From Marinobacter sp. LV10R510-11A (lineage in GTDB: Bacteria; Pseudomonadota; Gammaproteobacteria; Pseudomonadales; Oleiphilaceae), in assembly GCF_900215155.1 (NCBI RefSeq), contig NZ_LT907980.1, forward strand, positions 1,488,001 to 1,552,000: DNA of 64,000 nt, read 5' to 3'. The position numbers and the translations under genes are program-made. Position 1 is the stretch's first letter. Every line of letters begins with the position of its first letter. Shown here one piece after another: positions 43,572-59,562 of the stretch. The notes below the pieces were generated by a model. The model searched no databases and was not told the origin of the DNA. It worked only from the letters and a program-made list of their open reading frames with translations.

Positions 43572-44141
43572 TTAAGCAGGCTTATCCTCATTAGATCGCA
43601 GCTTTTGTAAAGCACGATAAACTGTCATTCGTGATAAGCCCATGTCCCTGGCAACCTGGGCCTTTGTGTTTCCACTTGCCATGCGTGTGTAGATTTCGGC
43701 TTCATCGACAGTTTTTCGGCGGCCCTTGTAGGCCCCTTTGCCTTTCGCGACCTCAATGCCGGCACGCTGCCGATCCTTTATAAACTTCAGTTCCATGTCC
43801 GCGACCATGCCCAAGACAGTGATCATCATGCGACCCATGTCACCCTTGGTTGTTATATCGGGTTCAAGAACGCGTAACGAGGCGCCCCGAGCATCCAGCT
43901 CATGGACCAAATTCAGTACGTCACGGGTAGAGCGACCCAGACGATCGAGGCGATGAACAACGAGCTCATCACCTCGACGCAAGAACTCAAGCACAGTCTC
44001 TAGCTCGCCTCGCCCATCGCGCGAAGCGCCAGACACCGTCTCGGATCGAATGACTTCGCAGCCTGCGTCGGTCAGTTTTCCGATTTGAATGTCGAGATCC
44101 TGACTTGCACTGCTAACGCGTGCATATCCGATGAGGGGCAT
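43572..44141 (-). CDS. Small serine recombinase (resolvase/invertase family)
   Basis: A 189-residue resolvase-type recombinase. The catalytic serine is in YARVSSASQDLDIQ near residue 9, the active-site arginines in LVVHRLDRLGRSTRDV near 65, and the long E helix near 105-130. The C-terminal helix-turn-helix reads TKAQVARDMGLSRMTVYRAL. Such enzymes resolve cointegrates or invert DNA at short sites. A candidate recognition region with several TGTCAC motifs lies directly upstream at 44149-44227. It is the first of two serine recombinases around the DinJ/YafQ pair. Confidence 0.9.
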   Translation of the reverse strand: MPLIGYARVSSASQDLDIQIGKLTDAGCEVIRSETVSGASRDGRGELETVLEFLRRGDELVVHRLDRLGRSTRDVLNLVHELDARGASLRVLEPDITTKGDMGRMMITVLGMVADMELKFIKDRQRAGIEVAKGKGAYKGRRKTVDEAEIYTRMASGNTKAQVARDMGLSRMTVYRALQKLRSNEDKPA

Positions 44142-44148
44142 AGTGTTT

Positions 44149-44227
44149 TGTCACATTAGGGTGGTTAGAAAAAAGATACTGTCACAAAAATAATTTTATA
44201 CCCAATAGTGACACTTTTGCGTGTCAC
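44149..44227. promoter_or_regulatory. Candidate res-like site for the serine recombinase
   Basis: Four TGTCAC motifs (44149, 44180, 44208 inverted, 44222) lie just before the recombinase gene. The pair 44180/44208 forms a 34-base inverted site with AT-rich centre, and GTGACAC-TTTTGC-GTGTCAC at 44207-44228 is a perfect 7-base inverted repeat. Spacing and motif resemble resolvase subsites; binding is inferred. Confidence 0.5.
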
Positions 44228-44282
44228 ATCAAACCATCCCCTAAGGGTATAGTTCAGCTTGACATCGGCTCAAGTTTTTCTA

Positions 44283-44316
44283 TTGCCTAATTTCGGACAC
44301 TGGGCTACAATGTAGC
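44283..44316 (+). promoter_or_regulatory. Promoter and operator of the DinJ/YafQ-type operon
   Basis: A -35-like TTGCCT (44283-44288) and -10 TACAAT (44306-44311) are spaced by exactly 17 bases. The -10 lies inside a 13-base palindrome GCTACA-A-TGTAGC (44304-44316), the arrangement expected for autorepression by the antitoxin. Confidence 0.65.
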
Positions 44317-44339
44317 TCAACAAGGTGGAGGATTGAACT

Positions 44340-44603
44340 ATGTCAGCGAATGCTGTTGTGCGTGCTCGGATCGACGAGCACATCAAGGAGGAAGCGACCG
44401 TTGTATTGGCGGCCATGGGGCTTACCGTGTCGGATGCTTTTCGCATCCTGCTCACCCGCGTTGCCCGCGAAAAGGCGCTACCTTTTGAGCCGTTGGTCCC
44501 AAATGACGAAACCATCGCAGCGATGAAGGAAGCGCGCCGTGGCAACTTGCCTTCGTTCGCCACCGTCGAGGGACTGATGGCGGATTTGAATGCGGACGAT
44601 TGA
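44340..44603 (+). CDS. dinJ: RelB/DinJ-family antitoxin
   Basis: An 87-residue ribbon-helix-helix antitoxin. The N-terminal strand and helices read VVRARIDEHIKEEATVVLAA then GLTVSDAFRILLTRVAREKALPF, the typical DinJ pattern. It should bind and neutralise the toxin encoded directly downstream and repress the operon through the palindrome at 44304-44316. GGAGG (44327-44331) eight bases before the ATG is a strong ribosome site. Its stop overlaps the TTG start of the toxin. Confidence 0.9.
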   Translation: MSANAVVRARIDEHIKEEATVVLAAMGLTVSDAFRILLTRVAREKALPFEPLVPNDETIAAMKEARRGNLPSFATVEGLMADLNADD

Positions 44604-44872
44604 GCGTACCGGGAAATTCAAACGCGACTACTAAGCGTGAAGCCAAAGGCGCCCACAGGGCGACGCTGGAGCGCAATTTCATCGAGGTCGTGGTCGCGCT
44701 GGCGAACGATCAACCCTTGGCCGAGAAGCATCGCGACCACGCGCTGATCGGCGACTGGAAAGATTACCGCGACTGTCACGTCAAGCCCGACCTAGTGTTG
44801 ATTTATCGAACGCCTAATGTCGGGGTGCTACAGCTCGTGCGTTTAGGCCCTCACAGCGAACTCGGTCTTTAA
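44600..44872 (+). CDS. yafQ: YafQ-family mRNA-interferase toxin
   Basis: A 90-residue RelE-superfamily toxin. The conserved core HRDHALIGDWKDYRDCHVKPDL, then LIYR, and the terminal RLGPHSELGL, contains the His/Asp/His set used by YafQ for ribosome-dependent mRNA cleavage. Translation probably starts at TTG 44600, overlapping the antitoxin stop by four bases, the usual coupling. The first 15 residues are poorly conserved, so the exact start is uncertain. No lesion is seen. Confidence 0.85.
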   Translation: MSVPGNSNATTKREAKGAHRATLERNFIEVVVALANDQPLAEKHRDHALIGDWKDYRDCHVKPDLVLIYRTPNVGVLQLVRLGPHSELGL

Positions 44873-44996
44873 TGGGCAAAACCGAATGCAGCATCGGACC
44901 ATCAACAATGTTGATCTAGCACTGACCGGACCTTGACGTGTTTTATTTGCCGTTTCGTGAGTTGACCCCTTTGTGCGATCAATAAACGCTCGTTTG

Positions 44997-45557
44997 ATGA
45001 TCATAGGATATGCACGTGTCAGTACCCAAGATCAAAATCCGGAGTTCCAGGTCGATGCTCTGGAGAAAGCCGGTTGCGAACAGATCTTTCAAGAAAAGTT
45101 TACCGGCAAGCTCCGGGAACGACCTGAGCTGTCGCAGTGTCTGCGTACCCTCCGAAAGGGGGATATTCTGGTTGTCTGGAAACTGGATCGGCTTGCCCGT
45201 TCGCTGAAAGACCTGGTTGAAATAGTCCAGGAGCTCCATGATCGAGAAATCGGCTTCAAGTCACTGACGGAATCCATCGACACCACCAGTTCCGGTGGCC
45301 GCTTGGTGTTCCATATCTTCGGTGCCTTGGCTGAGTTTGAACACGACCTGATTCGGGAGCGGACGATAGCAGGACTCCAGGCAGCCAGAGCAAGGGGACG
45401 AAAGGGTGGGCGAAAACGCGCAATGTCGGATGCTGATGTGAGAAAGGCTGCGGCAATGCTCTCTGACATTCACATCACCACGAAAGAAGTTGCTGAATTT
45501 TTCCAAGTATCCAGAACCACTTTAAATGCTGCGCTATCGAGGATCGGCTCGAATTAG
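44997..45557 (+). CDS. Serine recombinase, DNA-invertase (Pin/Hin) type
   Basis: A 186-residue recombinase with MIIGYARVSTQDQNPEFQVD (catalytic Ser near 10), VVWKLDRLARSLKDLVEIVQ (active-site Arg) and LIRERTIAGLQAARARGRKGG before a C-terminal HTH (TTKEVAEFFQVSRTTLNAAL). The ATG at 44997 gives the standard family N-terminus; the longer open frame starts upstream at 44973. It ends 35 bases before cas3 in the same direction, so read-through from this gene may reach the cas operon. Only about 40% like the recombinase at 43572, so the two are not recent copies. Confidence 0.9.
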   Translation: MIIGYARVSTQDQNPEFQVDALEKAGCEQIFQEKFTGKLRERPELSQCLRTLRKGDILVVWKLDRLARSLKDLVEIVQELHDREIGFKSLTESIDTTSSGGRLVFHIFGALAEFEHDLIRERTIAGLQAARARGRKGGRKRAMSDADVRKAAAMLSDIHITTKEVAEFFQVSRTTLNAALSRIGSN

Positions 45558-45592
45558 TTCAGCTTGCTGCATAAGTAATTTTGGGCGAGAGC

Positions 45593-48169
45593 ATGCTAAG
45601 AAGAACGAAAACAACAACAAATGTAGACCACCCAGTAATATTATCTGGTGAATGTCCCGCGAAGACCTTCAAAAAGGTCAATGGCGATGTTGTTCAAGGT
45701 AGGTCAGTGTTGAACCATTGCCAGATTGTCGGTGAAGTTGCCCGCGAAATAATCGCCCGGATGCCGGTTAGCGGCTTGTTTCCTGCCGGTGCTCCATTAG
45801 CAGCAGCAGCTCATGATATAGGCAAAGTAAGCCCGTATTTTGCAGAGAAGATACGACAGGCCTGTACGCCTGGTATGGCACGGATTGCTTCAATACCCGA
45901 CATCAACCCGAAAATGGAGAGCCAATGGGGCGGTCACGCGGGTGTCAGCCAAGTAACAGCGAAAGCAATCAACACACCGGAATATTTAGCTGAAATTCTC
46001 GGCCAGCACCACGGTTTTGCCCCGCCGGTTGACGGCAAGCGGGCAAATGATGGTGTTTTTGGTGGGCCTGCCTGGCAGCATGAACGCGAAGCTCTGGTAG
46101 TTGAACTCAAATCACGACTGGGCATGAATTGGCCGCACATAGATTCTATGCCACAGGCACGTTTGTTGGCGGGGCTCACATCGGTATCGGACTGGATTGG
46201 CTCGGGTCAGTTTTTTGAAGACCCAGATTCACCCTGGCAGGAGAATATTGGTCGTGCCCTGGATGCAGCCGGTTTCGTGCCGGCTACTTACCGGCAAAGT
46301 ATGAGTTTTGAGCAGGTATTTTCTTTTCAACCCCACGCAGCCCAGCAACAATTGATTGACCAGGTAAAGGGTCCCGGGGTCTATGTGCTGGAAGCACCTA
46401 TGGGGTTGGGCAAGACCGAAGCGGCGCTTTACGTCGCCTATCGCATGCTGGAAACCAAACAAGCCAGCGGGATTTACTTTGCGCTGCCGACTCAACTGAC
46501 TTCCAACAAGATATTCGAGCGATTCAATGAGTTTCTTGCCAGTGTACTCGCCGATGATTGTGAACACCGTTCATTGTTGCTACATGGAAATGCTTGGTTG
46601 CTAGACACTGATATGGGCGAAGAAGGCAGGCCCGGTGGTGCCTGGTTCAATCAGGCCAAGCGTGGTCTGCTAGCGCCCTTTGCGGTAGGTACCATTGATC
46701 AGGCGCTGATGGCCGCAATGAACGTCAAACATGGCTTTGTGCGGGCGTTCGGGCTCGCCGGTAAAGTGGTGATTCTTGACGAGGTGCATACCTACGATGC
46801 CTACACCGGCACTTTGCTGGATGCGCTGATAGAGTTATTGAAAGCACTGCAATGCACAGTCATTATTCTCAGCGCTACCCTCAATCGTGATCGCCGTGAA
46901 CAGCTTTTGGGCTGTAAGCTGGTGAGCGATGCATACCCCTTGATCACTGCCGTGCCCAATGCCGGATTGGTTGCGGAAGTCTCCATGCCCGCCCCGGTGG
47001 GTCAGCGTGTGGCCATTCGTTTGCTGGAGCCGGAGCAAACGGCTCTTGAGGAAGCTCTTGACCGCGCCGAGGACGGTCAGCACGTATTGTGGATTGAAAA
47101 TACCGTTTTGGAAGCTCAGCAGCGTTACCTTGACCTGGCAGCGAGAGCAGTAGACAGGGGCGTTGCTTGTGGCTTGCTGCACTCACGCTACACGCCGGAT
47201 GATCGACAAGCGCTTGAGTCGCTGTGGGTGAACAGGTTCGGCAAAGCGGGCTGGTCAAACAGAGCAGAGCAAGGCTGCATTCTGGTTGGTACGCAAGTAC
47301 TGGAACAGTCGCTGGATATAGACGCAGACTTTATGGTGAGCCGCTTTGCGCCCACAGATATGCTGCTGCAACGCCTTGGTCGTCTCTGGCGACACGAGCA
47401 CACCCCCAGACCGACCACGGCAGTCTGTGAAGCCTGGGTACTGGCACCTGAGTTGCAGTACGCCACCGGCGCTCCTGAAAAGGCCTTTGGCAACAGCGCT
47501 TTCGTATACAGCCCCTTTGTGCTGTGTCGCAGCCTGGAGGTGTGGCAGGCTGTGGCTAAAATTCAATTATCGACTGACATTCGTTCATTGATCGAACGAA
47601 CCTATGCCACTCGTGACGAGTCTGCAGAACTGGCCGGAATGCTGACGGACCTGGATAACGGCACTCGCTGGCGTACCGGACGCAAGGCTATGCGGCAGCT
47701 TGCCCGCATCACGCTTGCGGATGCGGGTAATACGTTACCGGAAAGCAAAGCGCAAACACGATATAGCGAAACGGACAGTTTTGACGTTTTGTTATTGCGG
47801 CACATAAAGCTGGTGCCAGAAGACCGGGTAACGCGAATTACATTGTTGAATGGTGAACAGCATTCGCTACCTTGGCAGTGGCGAGTGTATAGCAAAGCAC
47901 AGTGGCGGAAATTGAGTGCTACGCTTATGCGCCAGGTGGTGGCGCTGCGTATACAGGACGCACCCTTGCAAATACCCCTCCAAACGCTCGAAAGGTTTCG
48001 TTTGCAGTATTGTTTCTATCTGGGTAATCCAGCACACGAAGAAGCCATCTTGCGAGTAGCACTGGTGGACGAAACTGGCAGGTTGAGCGGCTTACAGGGT
48101 GCGCCACTGCACGATAAATACAGCCTCAACTACCGCGATGACCTTGGCTACCGGGTTATCAAACCCTAA
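45593..48169 (+). CDS. cas3: CRISPR-associated helicase/nuclease Cas3 (type I-E)
   Basis: An 858-residue Cas3. The N-terminal HD nuclease has His42, the HD pair His74-Asp75 (AAAAHDIGK) and GQHHGF near 140. The SF2 helicase has Walker A in APMGLGKTEAAL, the DEVH box in VVILDEVHTYD, SAT motif LSATLNRD, and motif VI in QRLGRLWRHE. It unwinds and degrades DNA recruited by Cascade. ATG 45593 is preceded by GAGAG; a TTG at 45581 would add four residues. First gene of the cas operon, 13 bases before cse1. All catalytic motifs are intact. Confidence 0.97.
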   Translation: MLRRTKTTTNVDHPVILSGECPAKTFKKVNGDVVQGRSVLNHCQIVGEVAREIIARMPVSGLFPAGAPLAAAAHDIGKVSPYFAEKIRQACTPGMARIASIPDINPKMESQWGGHAGVSQVTAKAINTPEYLAEILGQHHGFAPPVDGKRANDGVFGGPAWQHEREALVVELKSRLGMNWPHIDSMPQARLLAGLTSVSDWIGSGQFFEDPDSPWQENIGRALDAAGFVPATYRQSMSFEQVFSFQPHAAQQQLIDQVKGPGVYVLEAPMGLGKTEAALYVAYRMLETKQASGIYFALPTQLTSNKIFERFNEFLASVLADDCEHRSLLLHGNAWLLDTDMGEEGRPGGAWFNQAKRGLLAPFAVGTIDQALMAAMNVKHGFVRAFGLAGKVVILDEVHTYDAYTGTLLDALIELLKALQCTVIILSATLNRDRREQLLGCKLVSDAYPLITAVPNAGLVAEVSMPAPVGQRVAIRLLEPEQTALEEALDRAEDGQHVLWIENTVLEAQQRYLDLAARAVDRGVACGLLHSRYTPDDRQALESLWVNRFGKAGWSNRAEQGCILVGTQVLEQSLDIDADFMVSRFAPTDMLLQRLGRLWRHEHTPRPTTAVCEAWVLAPELQYATGAPEKAFGNSAFVYSPFVLCRSLEVWQAVAKIQLSTDIRSLIERTYATRDESAELAGMLTDLDNGTRWRTGRKAMRQLARITLADAGNTLPESKAQTRYSETDSFDVLLLRHIKLVPEDRVTRITLLNGEQHSLPWQWRVYSKAQWRKLSATLMRQVVALRIQDAPLQIPLQTLERFRLQYCFYLGNPAHEEAILRVALVDETGRLSGLQGAPLHDKYSLNYRDDLGYRVIKP

Positions 48170-48181
48170 GGACCTACGCTC

Positions 48182-49678
48182 ATGGAAAACCGTTACAACT
48201 TAATAGATGAACCGTGGATACCTGTCGCGGATTATGGCCGAGTCAGTTTGCGGCAAGTGTTTAACCAGTCTGAATACCGCAGCCTCGGTGGCAACCCGGT
48301 GCAGAAAATAGCCTTACTAAAACTGCTGCAGGCCATCGCTCAGGCGGCAGCAACGCCGGAGGATGATGGCGAGTGGAAGGCTTTAGGTTGTAACGGGTTG
48401 GCTCAACAATGCTGTGAATATCTGGATAAGTGGCACGACCGTTTTTATCTCTATGGGGATCGGCCTTTCTTGCAGATGCCGGCTGTGGCTGCCGCTAGAG
48501 TTCAGGCTTATGGTGCCGTTATTCCCGAGGTTTCGTCTGGCAATACCACCGTGCTTAGTCAGATCCAGGTCCAGCGTTCGCTAGATGAGGCGGATAAAAC
48601 ACTATTGATCGTCAGTTTGATGGGTTTTGCTTTGGCAGGAAAGAAGGCTGATAACCATGTCGTGTTATCACCAGGTTACCAGGGGAAACGTAACGACAAA
48701 GGCAAACCCTCGTCGAGTAAACCGGGTCCTTCGGTGGCCCACATGGGCTTACTGCATAGTTTTCTGATAGGCAGCAGTCTTCAAGAGACGGTTTGGCTGA
48801 ATCTCCTGACTACCCGACTTATTGCTCAAACCAATATGTATCCACAAGGCATAGGTGTCGCGCCGTGGGAGCAAATGCCAGCAGGAGAAGATTGTTCCGT
48901 GGCAAAGGGCTTGAAACAGTCCCTGATGGGTCGACTCTTGCCTATTTGTCGATTTTGCCTGCTAACAACCGACGGGGTGCATTATTCTGAAGGGCTCGCG
49001 CACAGTGGATACAAAGAGGGTGGCGCTGACCCCTCTGTCGCAGTTAATTATTCAGGCAAAGAACCCAAGGCACTTTGGGTTGACCCAGAAAAACGGCCTT
49101 GGCGTGAACTCACCGCCTTGCTCGGCTTTTTTGGTCAAAACGGTAGCCAGGGCTTCCAGAGTTGGCAGATTAAAGGCGGACTCGATCGTGCGCGGGATGC
49201 AATAGATAGTTTCGCTCTGTGGTCTGGGGGCCTTCGGGTAAGCAGCAATGCGGGTGAGCAATACGTGTCCGGTAGTGATGATTTTGTTGAATCTCAGGTA
49301 TGGCTGCATTCCGATTTTTTGGGGGCGTCTTGGTTTGCTCAACTCAAAACAGAGATGGACGAAATGGACGTGCTCGCCCGGAACTTATACGGGCGGGTAA
49401 TGGCATTTTGCAAGGAACAAAAAGTTGATGGTAGCAAGCTTGCCGGGCAAGCAAGCCGATTATTCTGGCAGCTCAGCGAACGCAACTTTCAAACACTGGT
49501 TGATAGCTGCGATCAGGACGAGCGGTCAAACCAGCAGCGCCGCGAATTACGCCGCCAATTTGCAGGCTACGTTCATCAAGCCTACGACCAGTTTTGCCCG
49601 AAGGAAACCGCCCGCCAACTCGATGCCTGGGCCAAATGCCAACCGAATAACAGCAAATATCTAAAACAGGAGGCCTGA
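48182..49678 (+). CDS. cse1: Cascade large subunit Cse1/Cas8e
   Basis: A 498-residue Cas8e, beginning with the family hallmark YNLIDEPWIPV. Cse1 reads the PAM, opens target DNA and recruits Cas3. Length matches the E. coli protein (502). A C-terminal four-helix region follows residue 360. It is 13 bases after cas3 and four bases before cse2, in the same direction. No disruption is seen, so target recognition should be functional. Confidence 0.95.
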   Translation: MENRYNLIDEPWIPVADYGRVSLRQVFNQSEYRSLGGNPVQKIALLKLLQAIAQAAATPEDDGEWKALGCNGLAQQCCEYLDKWHDRFYLYGDRPFLQMPAVAAARVQAYGAVIPEVSSGNTTVLSQIQVQRSLDEADKTLLIVSLMGFALAGKKADNHVVLSPGYQGKRNDKGKPSSSKPGPSVAHMGLLHSFLIGSSLQETVWLNLLTTRLIAQTNMYPQGIGVAPWEQMPAGEDCSVAKGLKQSLMGRLLPICRFCLLTTDGVHYSEGLAHSGYKEGGADPSVAVNYSGKEPKALWVDPEKRPWRELTALLGFFGQNGSQGFQSWQIKGGLDRARDAIDSFALWSGGLRVSSNAGEQYVSGSDDFVESQVWLHSDFLGASWFAQLKTEMDEMDVLARNLYGRVMAFCKEQKVDGSKLAGQASRLFWQLSERNFQTLVDSCDQDERSNQQRRELRRQFAGYVHQAYDQFCPKETARQLDAWAKCQPNNSKYLKQEA

Positions 49679-49682
49679 GCGG

Positions 49683-50228
49683 ATGGACGCAGCAACTGAA
49701 AAGCTAAAATCAACAAGGGAAGAGCGCTTTGTGACCAGCGTGATAAAACGCTGCCAGGAAGATAAAGGCCTTGCAGCCCGGCTGCGACGCGGGGACAACC
49801 CCGCAACGGAATATCAGAGCTGGGAGTTGTTGGCCTCTTTGGGAGTTGATCTGGAAAAAGACTATGAACGGCTGCCGTTTGTTACCCTTGCCGCCGCGAT
49901 AGCCAAGACCAAGGCTGAACACAATGGCCGTCTGTCCCTTGGGCGCGCTATTGCTGCCTGCTATGAAGACGGCCGCGACAGCAACCAGGCCAAGGCTCGC
50001 CTACGTCGCTTACTGGCCTGCGAGGACACGCCGGAAGCCTGTCGTATTTTGCGCTCGCTCTTTTCGTTGATCGACAGCAAAGCCAATCAGCCGCTCGATT
50101 TTGTCAGGCTGCTTAAGCAGCTTCGGCGTTTTTCTTTTGATGATGCGCGCACTCAGATCAAAGCTCAGTGGGCGCAAGAGTTTTATGGTCAACCAGCCCA
50201 ATCGCAAGCTGGGGAGACAGGCGCATGA
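49683..50228 (+). CDS. cse2: Cascade small subunit Cse2/Cas11e
   Basis: A 181-residue helical protein with the Cse2 pattern: RLRRGDNPATEYQSWELL near residue 38 and RRLLACEDTPEACRILRSLF near 107. Two copies form the belly of Cascade and stabilise the displaced strand. The stop codon overlaps the start of cas6e by four bases (ATGA), so in this operon cse2 is coupled to cas6e rather than cas7. Confidence 0.93.
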   Translation: MDAATEKLKSTREERFVTSVIKRCQEDKGLAARLRRGDNPATEYQSWELLASLGVDLEKDYERLPFVTLAAAIAKTKAEHNGRLSLGRAIAACYEDGRDSNQAKARLRRLLACEDTPEACRILRSLFSLIDSKANQPLDFVRLLKQLRRFSFDDARTQIKAQWAQEFYGQPAQSQAGETGA

Positions 50229-50869
50229 GCATGATTGCCAGCGTGCTGCACCTGGATCGTAAAGCGATCCAGGCGCTACGCATTACCGACATTTACTCCC
50301 TACACCGAGTGGTTTACAGCCTGTATGACGATGTTCGCGATGCTGGGCAAAAGTCTGCCAGCGAGGGCAGCGGGATACTCTTTGCTGATCAGGGAGGTGA
50401 TTTCCGGAGCCGGCGCATTCTGATGCTGGCAAACCGCAGCCCGGCAGAATGCATTGATGGTCAATTCGGCGAGGTACAAAGCAAGACCATCCCTGACGAT
50501 TTTCTCAGCCATGCTCGCTATCGATTCAAGGTCGTCGTTAATCCCACACGACGTGACAGCGCTAGCCGCAAGTTGCTGCCGGTCAAAGGCCGTGAGGCCA
50601 TTGCGGAATGGTTTGCCGCCCGAGGCCCACAAAGCTGGGGCTTTACGGTATCGCGGCAGCACCTGCAGGTGGATAACGTGGATGTTCTGCGTTTCAAAGA
50701 CAAACACGATCATTTAGTCACTATCTGTCAGGCGCATGTTCAGGGTGAGTTCAGCGTTACCGATCCTGCACAGTTTCAACGCAGCTTTAAACAGGGCATA
50801 GGCCGGGCTCGCACATTCGGCTGTGGTCTGCTGCAAATCGTTCCAATAATCGATAATCCCTTCGCCTGA
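50225..50869 (+). CDS. cas6e: CRISPR RNA endonuclease Cas6e
   Basis: A 214-residue crRNA-processing nuclease. The N-terminal ferredoxin-like fold carries YSLHRVVYSLY with His27 as the likely catalytic residue. The middle reads RFKVVVNPTRR and LPVKGREAIAEWF, and the C-terminal glycine-rich loop is GIGRARTFGCGLLQIVPI. Cas6e cuts each repeat below its hairpin (CCCCAC-GCCC-GTGGGG here). The ATG at 50225 overlaps the cse2 stop; a longer open frame upstream is rejected. Its place between cse2 and cas7 differs from E. coli, where it follows cas5. Confidence 0.94.
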   Translation: MSMIASVLHLDRKAIQALRITDIYSLHRVVYSLYDDVRDAGQKSASEGSGILFADQGGDFRSRRILMLANRSPAECIDGQFGEVQSKTIPDDFLSHARYRFKVVVNPTRRDSASRKLLPVKGREAIAEWFAARGPQSWGFTVSRQHLQVDNVDVLRFKDKHDHLVTICQAHVQGEFSVTDPAQFQRSFKQGIGRARTFGCGLLQIVPIIDNPFA

Positions 50870-50883
50870 AAAGGAAATTCAAT

Positions 50884-51912
50884 ATGCACAATACTTACAC
50901 CAACACTCGTATCGAGTTTCATATTCTGCAATCTTTCCCGGTAACCTGCCTTAATCGCGATGATGTAGGTGCGCCCAAAACGGCCATTATTGGCGGAGTG
51001 AGTCGGGCTCGCGTCAGTTCACAGTGCTGGAAACGGCAAGTACGGTTGGCCATGCAAGATTTCGGCATCAAGCTGGCATCCCGCACCAAAAAATCAGAAG
51101 AGTTGTTTGTTAAAGCCTGTCTGGCTGCGGGCGCAGATGAAGCCAGCGCGCAAGCCTGCGGTAAGAAAATAGCTGATCAGTTAATTGACGATACCCTGCT
51201 TTTTATCAGCGATACCGAGGCCAATGCCTTCGCCGCCTATGCCCGTGAGCAAGGCTTTGACGATGCAAAGCTGAAGGATAAGGACCTCGCTAAAGTCGCC
51301 AAAAAAGCTCTCAATCCTGCCATTGATGCTCTCGATATCGCCTTGTTTGGCCGTATGGTTGCCAAGGCTGCTGACATGAATGTTCAGGCAGCCGCGTCTT
51401 TTGCACATGCCATTTCTACACACAAAGTCAGCAATGAAGTTGAATTTTTCACCGCTCTGGATGATCTGCAAACTGAACCTGGCTCTGCGCATATGGGCAG
51501 CCTGGAATTCAATTCGGCTACGTATTATCGCTACATCAGTCTTGATCTGGGCCAGCTTGCTCAAAGTCTGGACGGAGACGACCTGAAGAAAGCCATTGAA
51601 GCGTTCACTAAGGCGTTGTTTGTCGCAGTGCCTAGTGCGCGACAAACAACGCAGTCTGGCGCCAGTCTTTGGGAATTTGCTCGTGTGCAAGTACGAACAG
51701 GGCAGCGTCTGCAAGTGCCTTTCGAGACAGCTATCAAGGGCAAAGAGGGTGGCTATCTGCAACCAAGCATAGATGCGTTGCAAGGTTACCTGGATAAGAA
51801 AGAGAAGTTGTCCGGCTCCTTGTTCGGAAAACTAGCCAGCTATGACTGGGGCGAAGACGAAAGCTTCAGCATTGACGATTTGGTAGCAGCCCTACAAAGC
51901 CATGTGCAGTGA
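50884..51912 (+). CDS. cas7e: Cascade backbone subunit Cas7e (Cse4/CasC)
   Basis: A 342-residue RNA-binding backbone protein. It has IEFHILQSFPVTCLNRDDVGAPKTA near the N-terminus and GVSRARVSSQCWKRQVR, both signatures of Cas7e, and ATYYRYISLDL with PSARQTT in the second half. Six copies cover the crRNA spacer in Cascade. It follows cas6e by 14 bases. Slightly shorter than E. coli CasC (363). Confidence 0.96.
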   Translation: MHNTYTNTRIEFHILQSFPVTCLNRDDVGAPKTAIIGGVSRARVSSQCWKRQVRLAMQDFGIKLASRTKKSEELFVKACLAAGADEASAQACGKKIADQLIDDTLLFISDTEANAFAAYAREQGFDDAKLKDKDLAKVAKKALNPAIDALDIALFGRMVAKAADMNVQAAASFAHAISTHKVSNEVEFFTALDDLQTEPGSAHMGSLEFNSATYYRYISLDLGQLAQSLDGDDLKKAIEAFTKALFVAVPSARQTTQSGASLWEFARVQVRTGQRLQVPFETAIKGKEGGYLQPSIDALQGYLDKKEKLSGSLFGKLASYDWGEDESFSIDDLVAALQSHVQ

Positions 51913-51920
51913 GGTGATGT

Positions 51921-52631
51921 ATGAGCGATTCTTATTTGCTGTTGTGGCTCGAAGCCCCGCTCCAATCCTGGGGGCATGATTCAAAATTTGGTCGGCGTGA
52001 TAGCCTGGACTTTCCAACCAAATCTGGCGTTTTGGGCTTGCTGTGCAGCGCCCGTGGCGCCGGAGGCGAAGAGCAGGCATGGTTGGCAGCATGGGCTGAC
52101 CTGGACATGCAACTGGATGCCTATGTTCTAAAAGACCGGCTAGGGAAGCCAGTGCCACGGTTACCCTTGATGCGTGACTTTCATATGGTAGGTAGCGGTT
52201 ACGATAGTAAAAACCCCTGGGCCAGCCTGATGATTCCTAAAACCAGTGATGGCAAACCAGCTGTAGGTGGTGGTTCAAAAATGACCTATCGCTATTACCT
52301 TCAGGACATGGCCTATGCCGTCGCCATTCAGGCGCCAGCCGCGTATCTCGAACAGGCAGCGGAGGCCCTCAAAAGTCCGGTATGGGATTTGTACCTGGGG
52401 CGTAAAAGCTGCGTGCCTACAGAGTTCATTGCTCAAGGGGTTTTTGCCACGGCGGAAGAGGCTTTGAGGGCCGGTGCGCAGCTTGCTGCTGATAAAATTC
52501 GAGCCAGCGTCTTTCATGTCAGTCAGGGAGAGCATGAGGGTGAAGTGCTAACCCTTAATGATGTGCCATTGCAGTTTGGTGAGCACAAAAAATATCGCGA
52601 CAGGCGGGTTACCGTTCAGACGATGGAGTAG
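51921..52631 (+). CDS. cas5e: Cascade subunit Cas5e (CasD)
   Basis: A 236-residue RAMP protein that holds the 5' handle of the crRNA. It begins YLLLWLEAPLQSWGHDSKFG, the Cas5e hallmark, followed by RDSLDFPTKSGVLGLLCSA. The segment TYRYYLQDMAYAVAI and the later LYLGRKSCVPT are also family-typical. It is eight bases after cas7e and four bases before cas1, and looks intact. Confidence 0.96.
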   Translation: MSDSYLLLWLEAPLQSWGHDSKFGRRDSLDFPTKSGVLGLLCSARGAGGEEQAWLAAWADLDMQLDAYVLKDRLGKPVPRLPLMRDFHMVGSGYDSKNPWASLMIPKTSDGKPAVGGGSKMTYRYYLQDMAYAVAIQAPAAYLEQAAEALKSPVWDLYLGRKSCVPTEFIAQGVFATAEEALRAGAQLAADKIRASVFHVSQGEHEGEVLTLNDVPLQFGEHKKYRDRRVTVQTME

Positions 52632-53295
52632 TTTCATGGCAGATGGACAGCGATTATTCGTCAAGATCACCCGTGAGTCCTTGCCACAGGTCAAAGACAA
52701 GTACCCCTTTATCTATCTTGAACGCGGCAGGCTGGAGGTTGACGATAGCAGCATCAAATGGATTGATTCTGAGGCTAATGTCGTAGCTCTTCCTATTGCA
52801 ACCTTGAACACGTTGTTACTTGGGCCGGGTACTACGGTCACCCATGATGCAATTAAAACGGCGGTGGCTGCGAACTGCTCGGTGTGCTGGGTGGGTGAAG
52901 ACAGCTTGCTGTTCTACGCCGCTGGCTTTCTGCCTACAGCCGATACGCGAAACCTTAAGCAGCAGGTAGAACTGTCAGCCAATCCGGACAAGTCCTTAGA
53001 AGTGGCAAGGCGCCTGTTCGCCCGTCGCTTTCCCGATGCGGATTTGGATGGGAAATCTCTCAAGGAAATGATGGGCATGGAAGGCTATCGGGTTCGCTCG
53101 CTGTATCAGGAAAAAGCTCGCGAATACCAAGTAGGCTGGAAAGGGAGGCAGTTTACACCCGGCAAGTTTGAGTTTAGTGATATTACCAATCAGGTCATGA
53201 CGGCAGCCAATGCCGCCTTGTATGGGATATTGTGCTCCGCCATACACAGCATGGGTTATTCACCGCATATCGGTTTTATTCATTCGGGCAGTCCA

Positions 53296-53303
53296 TTACC
53301 TTT
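53296..53303 (+). repeat. Left target-site duplication of the IS1595-family element
   Basis: TTACCTTT, identical to 54329-54336 on the other side of the element. Eight bases is the usual duplication for the IS1595 family. Confidence 0.93.
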
Positions 53304-54328
53304 CCTGATTACGCATAAGAGTCAGCCATCTTTAGCAGCCTATAGGGCATAGGCGGTGTCCGGGCTGCTACTGTCAGGAACCGCGGAAGCATGGCTTTGA
53401 GATCGTAGCGCCGATTGAAGCGGTATTCGAACTCAGCGAGGTAGCGAGGGGTGTGCTGCCCCCGGATAGCGTGGTAAGTTCCAGTGATCGCGTTCTTGAC
53501 GTTGCCGAGCACGGTGTTGACCCAGTTGAACTCAGGATTCGCCACGCTGGCACGACCGCCTCCGGTGATGTGGCGCTCGTGGACGCAGGTGGCCGTGTCA
53601 AAGGCTCGGAAACAGTTGAGACCATCGCTGACAACGTGGCTTCCGGGCGCAATGGCCTGTTGGCTATAGCGACGCACCTCGGCCAGGGTAAAGCCACTCA
53701 CACGGCGAAGCTGAACCCGCATCGGGTGGCCCTCGCCATTGGTTTGTACCGCAGCGACAAAGGGGAATTTATGCTCGGCACCACGACCTGGTTTTCCCGA
53801 CCGTTCGCCGCCCAGATAGGCGTCATCAATCTCGATGCGGCCGCTGAGCCTCTCTCCCTGGTTGCGATCGTGCATGACCTGCAGCACCTTGTGTTTGAGC
53901 TTCCAGGCCGTGTTATAAGTGACACCGAGATCCCGAGACAGCTGCAATGCCGAGAGACCGCTCTTACGCTGGGTCAGCAGATAAATGGCCAGGAACCAGG
54001 TGGTCAACGGCAGGTGAGTCGCATGAAAGAGAGTGCCGGCGGTCAGTGACGTCTGATGGTGACAGCGATGGCACTGGTAATGCCCCCTCGATAGCCGGCA
54101 GCCGTTAGCATTGCCGCAGTCAGGGCACACAAATCCCTTGGGCCAGCGGTGCTGGAAAAGGGCTTCCTGGCACTGTGCTTCTGTGCCGTATTGCTTGAGA
54201 AAAGCCGGCAACGACAGGCCGGGCTGGAACTGGATTGGGTTACGTGCCATGAGATTGCCTCCTGTACTGTATATAATCAGTATAGGCCAGAATGGCGGCA
54301 GCGTGGCTGATTAACGTGAGTAATCAGG
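53304..54328 (-). mobile_element. IS1595-family insertion sequence, 1,025 bp
   Basis: Both ends start CCTGATTAC and carry TCAGCCA at offset 18 (19 of 25 terminal bases match in inverted orientation). One transposase gene fills the element, and its stop codon lies inside the left inverted repeat. Flanking 8-base duplications (TTACCTTT) are perfect. It is inserted antisense to the cas operon, so it may also block transcription into cas2 from upstream. Confidence 0.93.
53309..54250 (-). CDS. IS1595-family transposase
   Basis: A 313-residue DDE-type transposase. An N-terminal zinc-ribbon (CPDCGNANGCRLSRGHYQCHRC, four Cys) is followed by the ISXO2-like catalytic domain with IEIDDAYLGGERSG (first Asp), HVVSDGLNCF (second Asp) and EFNWVNTVLGNVKNAI then the final Glu/His segment in YLAEFEYRFNRRYD. 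Domain content and length match intact family members, so the element may still be mobile. The gene is antisense to cas1. Confidence 0.92.
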   Translation of the reverse strand: MARNPIQFQPGLSLPAFLKQYGTEAQCQEALFQHRWPKGFVCPDCGNANGCRLSRGHYQCHRCHHQTSLTAGTLFHATHLPLTTWFLAIYLLTQRKSGLSALQLSRDLGVTYNTAWKLKHKVLQVMHDRNQGERLSGRIEIDDAYLGGERSGKPGRGAEHKFPFVAAVQTNGEGHPMRVQLRRVSGFTLAEVRRYSQQAIAPGSHVVSDGLNCFRAFDTATCVHERHITGGGRASVANPEFNWVNTVLGNVKNAITGTYHAIRGQHTPRYLAEFEYRFNRRYDLKAMLPRFLTVAARTPPMPYRLLKMADSYA

Positions 54329-54336
54329 TTACCTTT
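54329..54336 (+). repeat. Right target-site duplication of the IS1595-family element
   Basis: TTACCTTT, the second copy of the 8-base duplication; cas1 coding sequence continues at the next base. Confidence 0.93.
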
Positions 54337-54521
54337 TGTCTATGACATGGCTGACCTATACAAAGAAGCGCTGTGCATTGATTTAGCCTTTGCGCTGACC
54401 CGCGATATGGCCGGCCGCTACAATAAAGCTACGGTTTCTGACGCTTTCCGAGAGCGGGTTGTCGATATAGATCTGCTGGCGCGTCTGGCCGATGACATTC
54501 CCGATATGTTGGGGGTAGGCC

Positions 54522-54809
54522 ATGCTCGTCGTCGTCGCAAATGACTTGCCGCCTGCAGTTCGCGGCCGGATGAAGCTGTGGTTTGTAGAGCCCAAGCCCA
54601 ATGTATTCGTGGCTGGCATCAAGGATTCCGTGGCCGTTACGGTGATCGACTACCTTTATAAGCACTGCCCACCTGAGTCTGGCGTCATGATATTCCGCTC
54701 ATTGCCTGGGCCGCCCGGTTACGAAATTAGAACTATAGGTCCTACCAAGAAAGCAATGATCAACATCAGCGGATTACAATTGGTTATTGAAACCCTTAAA
54801 TCTCATTAA
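54522..54809 (+). CDS. cas2: CRISPR-associated protein Cas2e
   Basis: A 95-residue Cas2e, beginning MLVVVANDLPPAVRGRMKLW with the family pattern also seen in E. coli Cas2 (MLVVVTENVPPRLRGRL). It forms the bridge between two Cas1 dimers during spacer insertion. It overlaps the 3' end of cas1 by 23 bases and looks intact, but it is downstream of the insertion in cas1, so expression may depend on a promoter in or after the element. Confidence 0.95.
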   Translation: MLVVVANDLPPAVRGRMKLWFVEPKPNVFVAGIKDSVAVTVIDYLYKHCPPESGVMIFRSLPGPPGYEIRTIGPTKKAMINISGLQLVIETLKSH

Positions 54810-54856
54810 ACAGCATATGTTGTGCTTATGCGCTGGTTCTTTCACAATTTGTTGTT
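54810..54856 (+). promoter_or_regulatory. CRISPR leader
   Basis: Only 47 AT-rich bases separate cas2 from the first repeat, so the functional leader may reach into the 3' end of cas2. The other array end carries the degenerate repeat, which places the leader here. I could not find a convincing IHF consensus. Confidence 0.6.
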
Positions 54857-57202
54857 GTCTTCCCCACGCCCGTGGGGGTGTTTCTGGTAGCGCCTTTTTT
54901 CTGCCAGCCAATACCGCGTCTTCCCCACGCCCGTGGGGGTGTTTCCTGGGATTTTGCGCCGTACCGTTTTGTACCCGCGTCTTCCCCACGCCCGTGGGGG
55001 TGTTTCTCTTATGACCTAGTGCGTGCTGGCGATTCATCTGTCTTCCCCACGCCCGTGGGGGTGTTTCCTCGGATAGATTGTTTTTTTGTGTGCGAATTCC
55101 GTCTTCCCCACGCCCGTGGGGGTGTTTCTATGTTAGAAGCTCCTATGGTCTAGGCGTAAACGTCTTCCCCACGCCCGTGGGGGTGTTTCCTCATAGCCGG
55201 GTACGCCCGGCAAGCAAGGTACGTCTTCCCCACGCCCGTGGGGGTGTTTCTCCCGAGAAACCCACACACTCTGACAGTCATCTGTCTTCCCCACGCCCGT
55301 GGGGGTGTTTCTCCCTGATCTTCTCTATCTCGCTGATCAGCTCGGTCTTCCCCACGCCCGTGGGGGTGTTTCCATAAGCCCTGCTAGCCGCCTCGGGGGT
55401 GCTATGTCTTCCCCACGCCCGTGGGGGTGTTTCTACCTGAGCCCTTTGGCTCCTACGTTTGGCCGCGTCTTCCCCACGCCCGTGGGGGTGTTTCCAGGTG
55501 CAACGCTTGCCAGGAGGAAGGCCATTAGTCTTCCCCACGCCCGTGGGGGTGTTTCTAAAAGGGGACGCCGAAGGTTGGGCGTATAGCGGTCTTCCCCACG
55601 CCCGTGGGGGTGTTTCCGGTCAAGACGCGTACGAAGTCAACAGCGTGACGTCTTCCCCACGCCCGTGGGGGTGTTTCCAGAAAGACTGGCACGAATACCT
55701 TGCCGACATTGTCTTCCCCACGCCCGTGGGGGTGTTTCCACGACCGTATCTGCATATTCTCAGGCGGCGGAGTCTTCCCCACGCCCGTGGGGGTGTTTCC
55801 TGACATCTTGTGGGCGTCTGTCCAGCTGCGCAGTCTTCCCCACGCCCGTGGGGGTGTTTCCGACGGCATTGTGTGCTCCACAATTAATGGAAAGTCTTCC
55901 CCACGCCCGTGGGGGTGTTTCCCATCGGCGTACTGGTGCAGCGTGATGATGGGAGTCTTCCCCACGCCCGTGGGGGTGTTTCTATATGGGCCGTGATAGT
56001 GAAGGGCGGCCAACTGTCTTCCCCACGCCCGTGGGGGTGTTTCCAGGGCTACGGCGCACCCGTTTTGGCAGGTTAGGTCTTCCCCACGCCCGTGGGGGTG
56101 TTTCTGTCAGGCTTAGCCGTCCAGCCTTTCAGCAGGTGTCTTCCCCACGCCCGTGGGGGTGTTTCTACAGGCATGTATATCTGTACGACTCCTTGTTTGT
56201 CTTCCCCACGCCCGTGGGGGTGTTTCTATGGATTGGCCGCATAAGCGGGCACAATCTTGGTCTTCCCCACGCCCGTGGGGGTGTTTCCAATGATTCGTGA
56301 CCTTCTTGCCATCCCCTATGGTCTTCCCCACGCCCGTGGGGGTGTTTCTGACTGACTTGTAAGCTATGCGAGGATCCTCCGGTCTTCCCCACGCCCGTGG
56401 GGGTGTTTCCGTATGCTTCCCACTCTTGCGGCATCGCCGGCAGTCTTCCCCACGCCCGTGGGGGTGTTTCTCCACAACGCCCATCTAATCGCCGCCTCCC
56501 CTGGTCTTCCCCACGCCCGTGGGGGTGTTTCTAGCCGATAACAGACCCGCACTCTTTGCACTTTGTCTTCCCCACGCCCGTGGGGGTGTTTCCAAAGATC
56601 GAGATGATTCAGCCGCAAGAGCGATGTCTTCCCCACGCCCGTGGGGGTGTTTCCAAGTTTTTAGAGATAGATCTTGATGGGGGTGTGTCTTCCCCACGCC
56701 CGTGGGGGTGTTTCCGAGGTTGAGGCGCTTGGCCTAAGCCTGAGCGAGTCTTCCCCACGCCCGTGGGGGTGTTTCTCCTGCAAAGGCGCTATAGAAGAGG
56801 CGGAAACAGTCTTCCCCACGCCCGTGGGGGTGTTTCTCGCCGCTATTACAAAAAGACGACCATGCAGGAGTCTTCCCCACGCCCGTGGGGGTGTTTCCAG
56901 GAACGTCTCGACGTGTGCCCGGGTCAGCGGGTCTTCCCCACGCCCGTGGGGGTGTTTCTTGAGCACCCACAGCGCCCAACACACTTTGAAAGTCTTCCCC
57001 ACGCCCGTGGGGGTGTTTCCCAAGTAGTACGCCTTTTCTTCGGTGTCTATTAGTCTTCCCCACGCCCGTGGGGGTGTTTCTCTACGGCGGTAAAAGAGGC
57101 GGGGTCTCCCGCTGTCTTCCCCACGCCCGTGGGGGTGTTTCCCGGCGCATGGGCAAGAAGGATGAGCTGATTAAGTCTTCCCCACGCCTGTGGGGGTGTT
57201 TT
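54857..57202 (+). CRISPR. Type I-E CRISPR array, 39 repeats and 38 spacers
   Basis: Repeats of 28 bases begin GTCTTCCCCACG and end CGTGGGGGTGTTTC; each forms the hairpin CCCCAC-GCCC-GTGGGG. The period is exactly 61 bases throughout (38 x 61 = 2,318 from first to last repeat start). All 38 upstream repeats are identical; the last (57175) has C-to-T at position 15 and T at position 28, as expected of the leader-distal end. Every inter-repeat unit is 33 bases and its first base is C (20 times) or T (18 times), so the repeat can also be read as 29 bases ending in a pyrimidine with 32-base spacers. No two spacers looked alike by eye. Transcribed in the same direction as the cas genes. Confidence 0.98.
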
Positions 57203-57528: not shown

Positions 57529-57858
57529 ATGTCGAGAGAAAAGAAGCCCCTGGAGTTCCTCGGGGATGCGCTGGCCAGCCTGCGAGACTTCCCTGGCGAG
57601 GCGCGCCGAGAAGCGGGCTACCAGCTGGACAGGACCCAGACTGGTGAGGACCCTACCCACTACCGGCCGATGCCGTCCGTGGGGCGCGGTGTGGTGGAGA
57701 TCAAGATCCGCGAGGACGATGGCGCTTTTCGGGTCTTCTACGTCGCTAACCGCGGTAATGCGATCTACGTGCTTCATTGCTTCCAGAAGAAGAGCCAGAA
57801 GACCGACAAGCAAGACATCGAGATCGGCAAGAAACGTTACAGCGAGATTCCAGACTAG
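57529..57858 (+). CDS. RelE/HigB-type (phage Gp49-like) toxin
   Basis: A 109-residue toxin of the RelE/ParE superfamily, Gp49-like branch. The motif VVEIKIREDDGAFRVFYVAN and the following HCFQKKSQKTDKQDIEIGKKRY are the hallmark of this group (positively charged catalytic face). The gene precedes its antitoxin, as in HigBA systems. ATG 57529 has CAGGAG seven bases upstream. Likely action is ribosome-dependent mRNA cleavage. Confidence 0.88.
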   Translation: MSREKKPLEFLGDALASLRDFPGEARREAGYQLDRTQTGEDPTHYRPMPSVGRGVVEIKIREDDGAFRVFYVANRGNAIYVLHCFQKKSQKTDKQDIEIGKKRYSEIPD

Positions 57859-57918
57859 GAATCCAGGCACCAACGAAAGACCCAACAGAACTACATGGAA
57901 CCTAACCAGGTGACAGAC

Positions 57919-58212
57919 ATGGCAAACGAACGATTCGAAAGTGTGTGGGATGCGATTGAAGACACCCCTGAAGAAGCCCTGAACATGCGCCTGCGCTCCG
58001 AACTGATGATTCAGATCACCAGGCGCGTGAAGGAGTGGGGCATCACTCAGAAAGAGGCGGCGCAGCGCCTGGGTATCACCCAACCCCGCCTGAACGACCT
58101 GCTGAACGGCCGCATCAACAAGTTTGGCCTTGACGCCTTGGTCAACCTGACCGGTCCGGCGCACTTCCACGTGGAGCTGACGCTGAAGGACGAGGAGGTG
58201 GCTGTGGCCTGA
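57919..58212 (+). CDS. Xre-family antitoxin (HigA-like)
   Basis: A 97-residue helix-turn-helix protein. The HTH reads ITQKEAAQRLGITQPRLNDLLNGRINKF near residue 45-70, typical of XRE antitoxins paired with Gp49-like toxins. It should neutralise the toxin upstream and bind the palindrome at 57479-57496. ATG 57919 follows AGGTGACAGAC; an ATG at 57895 is an alternative that would add eight residues. 60 bases separate it from the toxin. Confidence 0.88.
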   Translation: MANERFESVWDAIEDTPEEALNMRLRSELMIQITRRVKEWGITQKEAAQRLGITQPRLNDLLNGRINKFGLDALVNLTGPAHFHVELTLKDEEVAVA

Positions 58213-58559
58213 TGCCATGCCTTCCGGGGATATTCCGCAAACCATTAACCGAAGGGGTCAAAGACCTATTAACGGGTCTTATAATACCCCCTCCAAAAAA
58301 ACCTCAAGCATGCGCCCCCCCCAACAGCCGCTGACAGCAGAAGCGACGATAAGCAGAGAAACCGGAGGTATTTATGTTCCTGGTCTGTGCAACCCATCCC
58401 TTGAATCGACGCATGCGTGATTAGAAATTCTCGGTTTACAGCGAGTAATGCGAAATCCGCTCAAGGACAATGTTTTAAGTCGCGGTTATGGCAAACCAGC
58501 CAGGTTTGCCGAACCGTGGACTTAGGGAAGGCCTGAAACAAGCTTATCCCTCATCTCAT
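58213..58559. other. Intergenic region with a ykoF remnant
   Basis: This 347-base stretch has a weak hairpin AAGACC / GGTCTT at 58261-58280 after the antitoxin, possibly a terminator, and then a fragment of the ykoF gene (58331-58393, annotated separately). The rest shows no gene. Confidence 0.6.
58331..58393 (+). repeat. Decayed copy of the ykoF 5' end
   Basis: It matches 41528-41589 (end of ggt stop codon, ribosome site and first codons of ykoF) with two substitutions and one inserted G that shifts the frame after ATGTTCCTG. Similarity fades about ten bases further on. It begins at the CTGAC motif where the ggt copy at 59710-59812 ends. Confidence 0.85.
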
Positions 58560-59240
58560 TCAGCTATGGTAAAGCAGTTCTTCCAGAGCTCCGACACCAC
58601 CCGCCTCATCGACCATTTTACGAGGGGTTAACCCTCCCAAAAGGTCATCCGGGGTATCAAACCACCGCTGAGCCTTCGCTTTGGAGCCAAACTTCTCTTG
58701 AGCCCCAAGGAGTAAATCAGTCTCAATCATCTGCCGAATCTTTTTCATCGGTAAATAAAGGGTCTGGTTGCCATGGAACGATCGACCAATTCCCTGAAAA
58801 TCGTATTTCCGGAAAAAATCTTCACTTTTTTGGGTTAATGGATCAACGACTAGCGCGACACCCAGTTGGGTATTGGTATACAGGTCCCAGGACTGAAGTA
58901 GTGCCTCTACTAACAGTTCTTCACCAACGCGCATTGGAGTACCCTGGTAATCGGTATGAACACCTAGCCAAGCTAATTTAAAGGCGGGTAATGGGTAGTG
59001 AGGATAGTTCCCCGGGATTTCCGCATGGGCTACCGTACAACTGGTCAGGGTATAAAACCCAACAATTGGAGCTGGCTGGCGATCTACTGTTGCATCATCA
59101 AGCGCCACCCACGTTCTATTGACGGATTGCAGGGCTTGCTGACTCGCCCGTTTTTTCAAGAACTCGTTGACGTCAGCAAGCCCGCAATCAAATGTTTTAC
59201 GATCGTGAAGCTTCTTGTTCAGCTCTTCTATAAAAAGCAC
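58560..59240 (-). CDS. GNAT toxin with C-terminal Xre/MbcA/ParS-like domain
   Basis: A 226-residue protein. Residues 1-165 match TacT-type GNAT toxins that acetylate aminoacyl-tRNA: FDCGLADVNEFLKKRASQQ at the N-terminus and KLAWLGVHTDYQGTPMRVGEEL as the acetyl-CoA region. Residues 179-226 (FGSKAKAQRWFDTPDDLLGG followed by LTPRKMVDEAGGVGALEELL) resemble the DUF2384 toxin-binding domain of Xre/MbcA/ParS antitoxins, an odd addition. The start is GTG at 59240 and overlaps the antitoxin gene by 44 bases. The acetyl-CoA loop is less regular than in classical TacT (no QGxGxG), so activity is uncertain. Confidence 0.8.
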   Translation of the reverse strand: MLFIEELNKKLHDRKTFDCGLADVNEFLKKRASQQALQSVNRTWVALDDATVDRQPAPIVGFYTLTSCTVAHAEIPGNYPHYPLPAFKLAWLGVHTDYQGTPMRVGEELLVEALLQSWDLYTNTQLGVALVVDPLTQKSEDFFRKYDFQGIGRSFHGNQTLYLPMKKIRQMIETDLLLGAQEKFGSKAKAQRWFDTPDDLLGGLTPRKMVDEAGGVGALEELLYHS

Positions 59241-59562
59241 TATCCAGTTTCCGTTTATGTCGGCGGTGCATCGCTGCTGACAACGCTTCGTTTACCGTCT
59301 CTGGTGACTCGCAGGTCGCCTTGAAGGCAGCAAAAGCCTCGCTGTTCAACCGCACAACTTCTGCTTCCTCGATTGCTCGACTGGCTTTTTCGCGAATTGC
59401 TTGCACAACAAAATCGCTCAAATTTTTCGAGCCCACCAGAGCAGAAGCTCGCACCGCAAGGTTCTTGATGTCTGGATCCAATCGTAGATCCAGCCTTGCG
59501 ATTTTCTGTTGCATCGTATTATTCACTGCGGAATTTCTCATCGAATTCGGCGAGTTTCCCAC
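59197..59562 (-). CDS. DUF1778 (TacA-like) antitoxin
   Basis: A 121-residue ribbon-helix-helix antitoxin. The DNA-binding part reads KIARLDLRLDPDIKNLAVRA then LVGSKNLSDFVVQAIREKA, the DUF1778 pattern, followed by a toxin-neutralising tail. GTG 59562 is preferred since AAGGGAG lies six bases upstream; in-frame ATG codons at 59541 and 59514 would still include the domain. It is the first gene of the leftward pair with the GNAT toxin. Confidence 0.85.
   Translation of the reverse strand: MGNSPNSMRNSAVNNTMQQKIARLDLRLDPDIKNLAVRASALVGSKNLSDFVVQAIREKASRAIEEAEVVRLNSEAFAAFKATCESPETVNEALSAAMHRRHKRKLDSAFYRRAEQEASRS

What the first reader, a model, noticed from the sequence alone, without database searches (positions are those of the whole stretch)
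52636..54544. CRISPR adaptation knocked out by a recent, reversible IS insertion in cas1
The IS1595-family element at 53304-54328 is flanked by a perfect 8-base duplication, and deletion of the element plus one copy restores a full 291-residue Cas1 frame. The break lies between His216 and Asp226/Asp229, so neither fragment alone has a complete active site. cas3, the Cascade genes and the 39-repeat array are intact. The system should still interfere with known invaders but be frozen for new spacers. Precise excision could restore it, so this may act as a switch or be a snapshot of ongoing loss. The split-Cas1 state is seen directly; the functional consequence is inference from Cas1 biochemistry.
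Basis: partly seen in the sequence, partly recalled or inferred. Interest (0 to 1): 0.75.

Follow-up and report, generated by a model that had tools for sequence, protein, structure and literature searches.

The report
Mobile element inside CRISPR gene cas1
A small mobile DNA element has landed in the gene that a marine bacterium needs to add new memories to its CRISPR immune system, which probably leaves it able to use old memories but not to make new ones; this is a clear but ordinary kind of gene loss.

Summary
A 1,025-base IS1595-family element (53304-54328) splits a type I-E cas1 within codon 223, with a perfect 8-base duplication; the joined flanks read as a 291-residue Cas1. No other cas1 was found in the single-contig 4.44-Mb genome. 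cas3, Cascade genes, cas2, leader and a 39-repeat array look intact.

New evidence: (1) The empty-site allele exists: database protein P0002 is letter-identical to the joined flanks; of 120 listed hits, all 23 with at least 92% identity are 291 residues. (2) The IS is single-copy here but 97-99% identical to copies in other genomes of its genus, some with 8-base duplications. (3) The right-hand piece's first start codon lies after Asp226, so the two likely products together lack a catalytic residue. (4) The newest spacer matches four phage contigs 32/32.

Best reading: a recent chance IS knock-out of adaptation, interference spared. Nothing found supports a switch. IS insertions in type I-E cas genes are published for Shigella (PMC2886076, passages), and a second, unrelated cas1e here (G179) also runs into an IS1-like repeat. 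Ordinary.

The parts
52636..53303 (+). cas1e left part (residues 1-223; frame runs on 15 IS codons to a stop at 53350-53352)
   Evidence: (TIGR03638, 264 bits)
53296..53303 (.). left copy of the 8-bp target duplication TTACCTTT
53304..54328 (-). IS1595-family insertion sequence, 1,025 bp
53309..54250 (-). IS1595 transposase, 313 aa, open frame
54329..54336 (.). right copy of the 8-bp target duplication
54337..54544 (+). cas1e right part; first start codon ATG 54347 lies after the Asp226 codon
54522..54809 (+). cas2e, 95 aa, intact, overlaps the end of cas1 by 23 bases
54810..54856 (+). leader between cas2 and the array
   Evidence: the 30 bases before the first repeat fit the consensus of 66 other loci
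54857..57202 (+). CRISPR array, 39 repeats, 38 spacers
45581..48169 (+). cas3 (HD and helicase domains)
48182..49678 (+). cse1/casA
49683..50228 (+). cse2/casB
50168..50869 (+). cas6e (true start probably some codons inside this frame)
   Evidence: domain match begins at residue 22
50884..51912 (+). cas7e
51921..52631 (+). cas5e

Best explanation
A type I-E CRISPR-Cas system in a bacterium of the genus Marinobacter lost its integrase gene when an IS1595-family element, probably arrived from a related Marinobacter, inserted in cas1. The insertion cuts the protein between His216 and Asp226/Asp229 of the active site. No Cas1 with all four catalytic residues can be made, so Cas1-Cas2 cannot add spacers. 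Cas3, Cascade, Cas6e and the array are untouched, so existing spacers should still give immunity. It is a recent, random loss-of-function event seen before further decay; it has no special function. Shown: anatomy, single copy, absence of another cas1, existence of the uninterrupted allele. Inferred: loss of spacer acquisition, retained interference, chance rather than selection.
For: Perfect 8-bp duplication and defined ends. Joined flanks identical to natural protein P0002. P0003 and P0004 are also intact with 4 and 2 substitutions, and the 23 listed hits at 92% identity or more are all 291 aa (120 of 3,522 listed). IS single copy here, 97-99% identical to same-genus copies in G004, G117, G102. 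No other cas1. Alanine at any of E141, H208, D218, D221 abolished E. coli Cas1 nuclease activity (PMC4046053, passage seen); the window counterparts H216, D226, D229 are separated by the IS and the right piece restarts after D226. Interference genes match their families over nearly full length. Leader and cas2-array spacing are like relatives. No interrupted cas1e in 82 other distinct loci.
Against: No expression or acquisition data. Loss of activity is inferred from homology. A non-standard start codon (for example ATC 54323) upstream of D226 could in principle give a longer right piece. Age is not dated: the time depth of 'recent' rests on the perfect duplication, the identical P0002 and the undecayed frames. 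The source of P0002 is not shown, so it is not proved to be the same species.
Confidence: 0.92

Rival explanations
1. Reversible switch: precise excision of the IS turns adaptation back on, so cells alternate between learning and memory-only states.
For: Perfect 8-bp repeats and an intact transposase frame; uninterrupted alleles exist.
Against: The intact alleles are as well explained as ancestral. No invertible or regulated structure seen; promoter-like sites in 53200-54900 are not above chance (2 found, 1.1 expected). No paper on precise excision of this family among the titles listed.
Confidence: 0.03
2. Split but working Cas1: the two fragments assemble in trans with Cas2 and still integrate spacers.
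For: Both frames are undecayed (223 and 74 codons open) and cas2 is intact.
Against: The cut lies in the active-site segment; the right piece restarts after Asp226 and has no ATG/GTG/TTG start before it after the stop at 54317. No promoter above chance for the right piece.
Confidence: 0.02
3. Selected loss: cells that lost adaptation were favoured because new spacers are costly (autoimmunity), while old memory stayed useful.
For: Only the adaptation gene is hit; the interference part is intact; the newest spacer matches phage DNA.
Against: One insertion in one genome cannot show selection. No self-targeting spacer in the genome that would point to autoimmunity: besides the array the best own-genome match is 25 nt at 92%, E=0.06. 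By chance alone, one of eight cas genes is hit.
Confidence: 0.06
4. Assembly artefact.
For: None found; the reads are not available here.
Against: The element is single copy at nucleotide level in this genome, has exact ends and a perfect duplication, so there is no repeat to cause a false join.
Confidence: 0.01

Closest known systems
IS insertions and pseudogenes in type I-E cas genes of Shigella, Escherichia and Salmonella (PMC2886076, passages seen)
   Same: Type I-E cas genes disrupted by IS elements as part of ongoing loss of the system.
   Different: In Shigella almost all cas genes are hit; here only cas1, with all interference genes and a 38-spacer array intact.
Systems with interference but little or no adaptation, such as type III-A of the M. 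tuberculosis complex (PMC13334790, passages seen)
   Same: Effector genes kept, spacer acquisition apparently off; cas1 mutations are reported there.
   Different: Different CRISPR type, many lineages and a long history; here a single recent IS event.
IS1595-family insertion sequences
   Same: Transposase, zinc ribbon, inverted repeats, 8-bp duplications at several copies.
   Different: Nothing special seen; no passenger gene.
cas1e of genome G179 (unnamed gammaproteobacterium), this work
   Same: cas1e frame ends after about residue 91 and runs into a sequence repeated at other contig ends with a weak InsA (IS1) zinc-ribbon match.
   Different: Another IS family and site; draft genome, right junction and duplication not seen.

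Membership tests
IS1595-family insertion sequence | IS1595-type transposase | tested here: met
   NF033547 200.6 bits (cut-off 75), PF12762 and PF12760 above cut-offs
IS1595-family insertion sequence | Terminal inverted repeats and 8-bp target duplication (length recalled as typical of the family) | tested here: met
   25-nt repeats 76%, 8-bp duplication here and at three other copies; absent at four other copies looked at
IS1595-family insertion sequence | Transposition activity | not testable with these tools
   Only the open frame and the spread of near-identical copies in the genus are seen
Type I-E CRISPR-Cas | cas3-cse1-cse2-cas7-cas5-cas6e effector set | tested here: met
   All present as I-E family members
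Type I-E CRISPR-Cas | Intact cas1-cas2 adaptation module | tested here: not met
   cas2 intact, cas1 split, no other cas1
Type I-E CRISPR-Cas | CRISPR array with leader next to cas2 | tested here: met
   39 repeats, leader like relatives
IS-based reversible genetic switch | Precise excision or both states arising in one clone | not testable with these tools
   Only one genome state per strain is seen; the uninterrupted allele exists elsewhere

The most novel reading that the evidence does not exclude
A standing polymorphism within one Marinobacter population: adaptation-proficient cells (P0002-like, identical Cas1) and memory-only cells (IS-broken cas1) coexist and are kept by selection, dividing the labour of learning and remembering phages.
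Probability: 0.05. Interest if true: 0.55.

Novelty: new member of a known kind. Interest (0 to 1): 0.17.

Why it matters
It is a clean natural cas1 knock-out: intact effector genes, leader, cas2 and array, a defined insertion, and an uninterrupted allele identical in protein sequence in the public data. It could serve as a matched pair to measure what naive and primed adaptation are worth in a marine bacterium. It does not change what is known about CRISPR or IS elements.

Tried and rejected
Second cas1: rejected after three own-genome searches (PF01867, P0002, TIGR00287). The PF01867 search is weak for this subtype (best 21 bits per piece), so the other two carry the weight.

IS burst in the genome: rejected. 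The element is single copy; the nearest own-genome relatives are a 54%-identical transposase and a 69-residue fragment.

IS-borne promoter for cas2: two promoter-like sites against 1.1 expected; no claim made.

Insertion as part of general decay of the locus: no other frameshift or missing gene among the eight cas genes.

Protospacers: the whole array against phage and plasmid collections gave no convincing protospacer (plasmid matches were mostly to other CRISPR-like arrays). Six spacers were tried in viral contigs: 1 and 14 matched, 3, 2, 5 and 8 did not. The other 32 spacers were not tried there. In 100 same-genus genomes no near-full spacer match was seen apart from arrays.

Literature: (listings; passages of PMC3119063, PMC6301781, PMC6889575, PMC2886076, PMC5704556, PMC13334790, PMC5524643 and PMC4046053 read). 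No report of this insertion was seen in those listings; that is not proof that none exists.

No structure was predicted; not needed for the argument.

Full report
What is there. The window lies at 1488001-1552000 of a 4,436,489-base single-contig genome. Its genus is Marinobacter by inference: three genomes placed in the same genus (G071, G114, G015) have contigs of the same lengths as the named records L013 Marinobacter sp. SS21, L019 M. zhejiangensis and L037 Marinobacter MAG-100. Between 45581 and 57202 lies a type I-E CRISPR-Cas locus: cas3, cse1, cse2, cas6e, cas7, cas5, cas1, cas2 and an array. cas1 is the only gene that is broken. This kind of cas1 is rare in the genus: 2 of 37 same-genus genomes, the own one included.

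The insertion. A 1,025-bp element (53304-54328) carries a 313-aa IS1595 transposase on the minus strand and has imperfect 25-nt terminal inverted repeats; TTACCTTT is duplicated on both sides. Full-length relatives on a Marinobacter plasmid (81%) and in same-genus genomes match from base 1 to base 1025, which fixes the ends. 8 of 100 same-genus genomes have some match (own included); full or long copies at 97-99% occur in G004, G117 and, as fragments, G102, and at 82% in G084. Two of four G004 copies and the G117 copy show 8-bp duplications; two G004 and two G084 copies do not. In its own genome the element is single copy; the nearest other transposase is 54% identical. So it came from outside, probably from a relative, and is not a local multiplication.

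The gene. The left piece has 223 native residues and 15 from the IS. The right frame opens after a stop at 54317-54319; its first ATG, GTG or TTG is ATG 54347, the codon after Asp226. E. coli Cas1 needs E141, H208, D218 and D221 (PMC4046053, passage). The window counterparts are E149 by position, H216, D226 and D229 (H-D-D also aligned with the solved Cas1 8hi1_A). The left piece holds E149 and H216, the right piece from its ATG holds only D229.

Intact alleles. A protein search with the left piece listed 120 of 3,522 hits. The best, P0002 (291 aa, two contigs, longest 8,667 bases, source not shown), is identical to the joined flanks, letter for letter. P0003 and P0004 differ by 4 and 2 residues. 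The 23 listed proteins at 92% identity or more are all 291 aa. The listing shows no other copy of the 238-aa broken form.

How common is it. In 83 loci (82 distinct, as L089 and L037 are the same place) with a related cas1, none is interrupted: 80 passed the script, L051 has a full frame plus a second Cas1-like hit, and L090 and L091 were read on the wrong strand by the script but show one unbroken match over residues 19-284. In 369 class-level genomes, 43 matched P0002; of the 30 others with E below 1e-20, 29 have frames of 300 codons or more and one, G179, stops after about residue 91. There the sequence runs into a stretch repeated at other contig ends with a weak InsA match, that is, an IS1-like element, and no other cas1 was found in that draft genome. 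The 12 weaker matches were not judged. So IS disruption of cas1e is uncommon but not unique, and IS insertions in type I-E cas genes are published (PMC2886076, passages).

The rest of the system. cas2 is intact and overlaps the end of cas1 by 23 bases, so its translation may be coupled to cas1 and may suffer (inference). The 30 bases before the first repeat fit the 70% consensus of 66 other loci except the last-but-one base, and the distance from cas2 is usual (cas2 found in 80 of 81 sequences, first repeat within 500 nt in 67). The array has 39 repeats and 38 spacers of 33 nt, no duplicates; all 38 begin with C or T, mostly so in related arrays too. Spacer 1, the newest by position, matches four viral contigs over 32 of 32 bases (first base G instead of T) inside a primase gene, with AA upstream; spacer 14 matches three contigs 33 of 33 with AA upstream, and two more with 3 mismatches. 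Four other spacers tried had no match. The first base is thus probably the last base of the motif next to the target, taken in during acquisition (one match for, one against). The newest spacer follows the same rule as the rest, so there is no sign of abnormal acquisition after the insertion. No self-targeting spacer was seen.

Reading. A recent chance IS insertion that abolishes adaptation and spares interference. The parts shown are the anatomy, the single cas1, the existence of the intact allele and the phage matches of two spacers. The loss of acquisition and the retained interference are inferred from homology. A switch is possible only in the sense that any IS flanked by direct repeats might be lost; nothing here points to it.

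Noticed in passing
54857-57202: All 38 spacers begin with a pyrimidine (20 C, 18 T); related arrays are mostly so. Spacer 14's first base agrees with its phage target (AA-C), spacer 1's does not (T in the array, G in four phage contigs), perhaps a changed motif in those phages.
   Followed up: partly
54885-54917 (spacer 1); L121-L124: The newest spacer matches a primase gene in four IMG/VR contigs that also carry Sak4-like, SSB, Cas4-domain exonuclease and helicase genes.
   Followed up: partly
L117:9984-10011 (G004), L120 minus strand: Genome G004, in which no such cas1 was found, carries one isolated perfect copy of the window's 28-nt repeat and another with 4 mismatches elsewhere; a collapsed array or another solitary repeat unit.
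   Followed up: no
L149:1489-1906 (G179): Another cas1e broken after about residue 91 by an IS1-like sequence repeated at contig ends.
   Followed up: partly
protein P0059: A 225-aa Cas1 relative (89%) that ends two residues after the very site where the window's IS lies; frameshift, contig end or another insertion, DNA not seen.
   Followed up: no
protein P0025: A 326-aa Cas1 with a tandem repeat of about 35 residues around the same active-site segment; may be an assembly error.
   Followed up: no
43572-45557 and 57529-59562: The CRISPR locus is bordered by two serine resolvase genes and toxin-antitoxin-like pairs (RelB/YafQ, Gp49/HTH, TacA-like), suggesting a mobile island.
   Followed up: no
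L051:8453-9298: Serratia microhaemolytica locus has a second, distant Cas1-like stretch (24%) 1.6 kb after its cas1e.
   Followed up: no
spacer 21; L112, L113, L114: 21 of 21 bases (positions 8-28) match a Marinobacter-genus genome G088, and 20-base 95% matches occur in G072 and G115; target not examined.
   Followed up: no
L096 (G117): The closest copy of the IS (99% over 973 bases) is itself interrupted by about 1 kb of other DNA.
   Followed up: no
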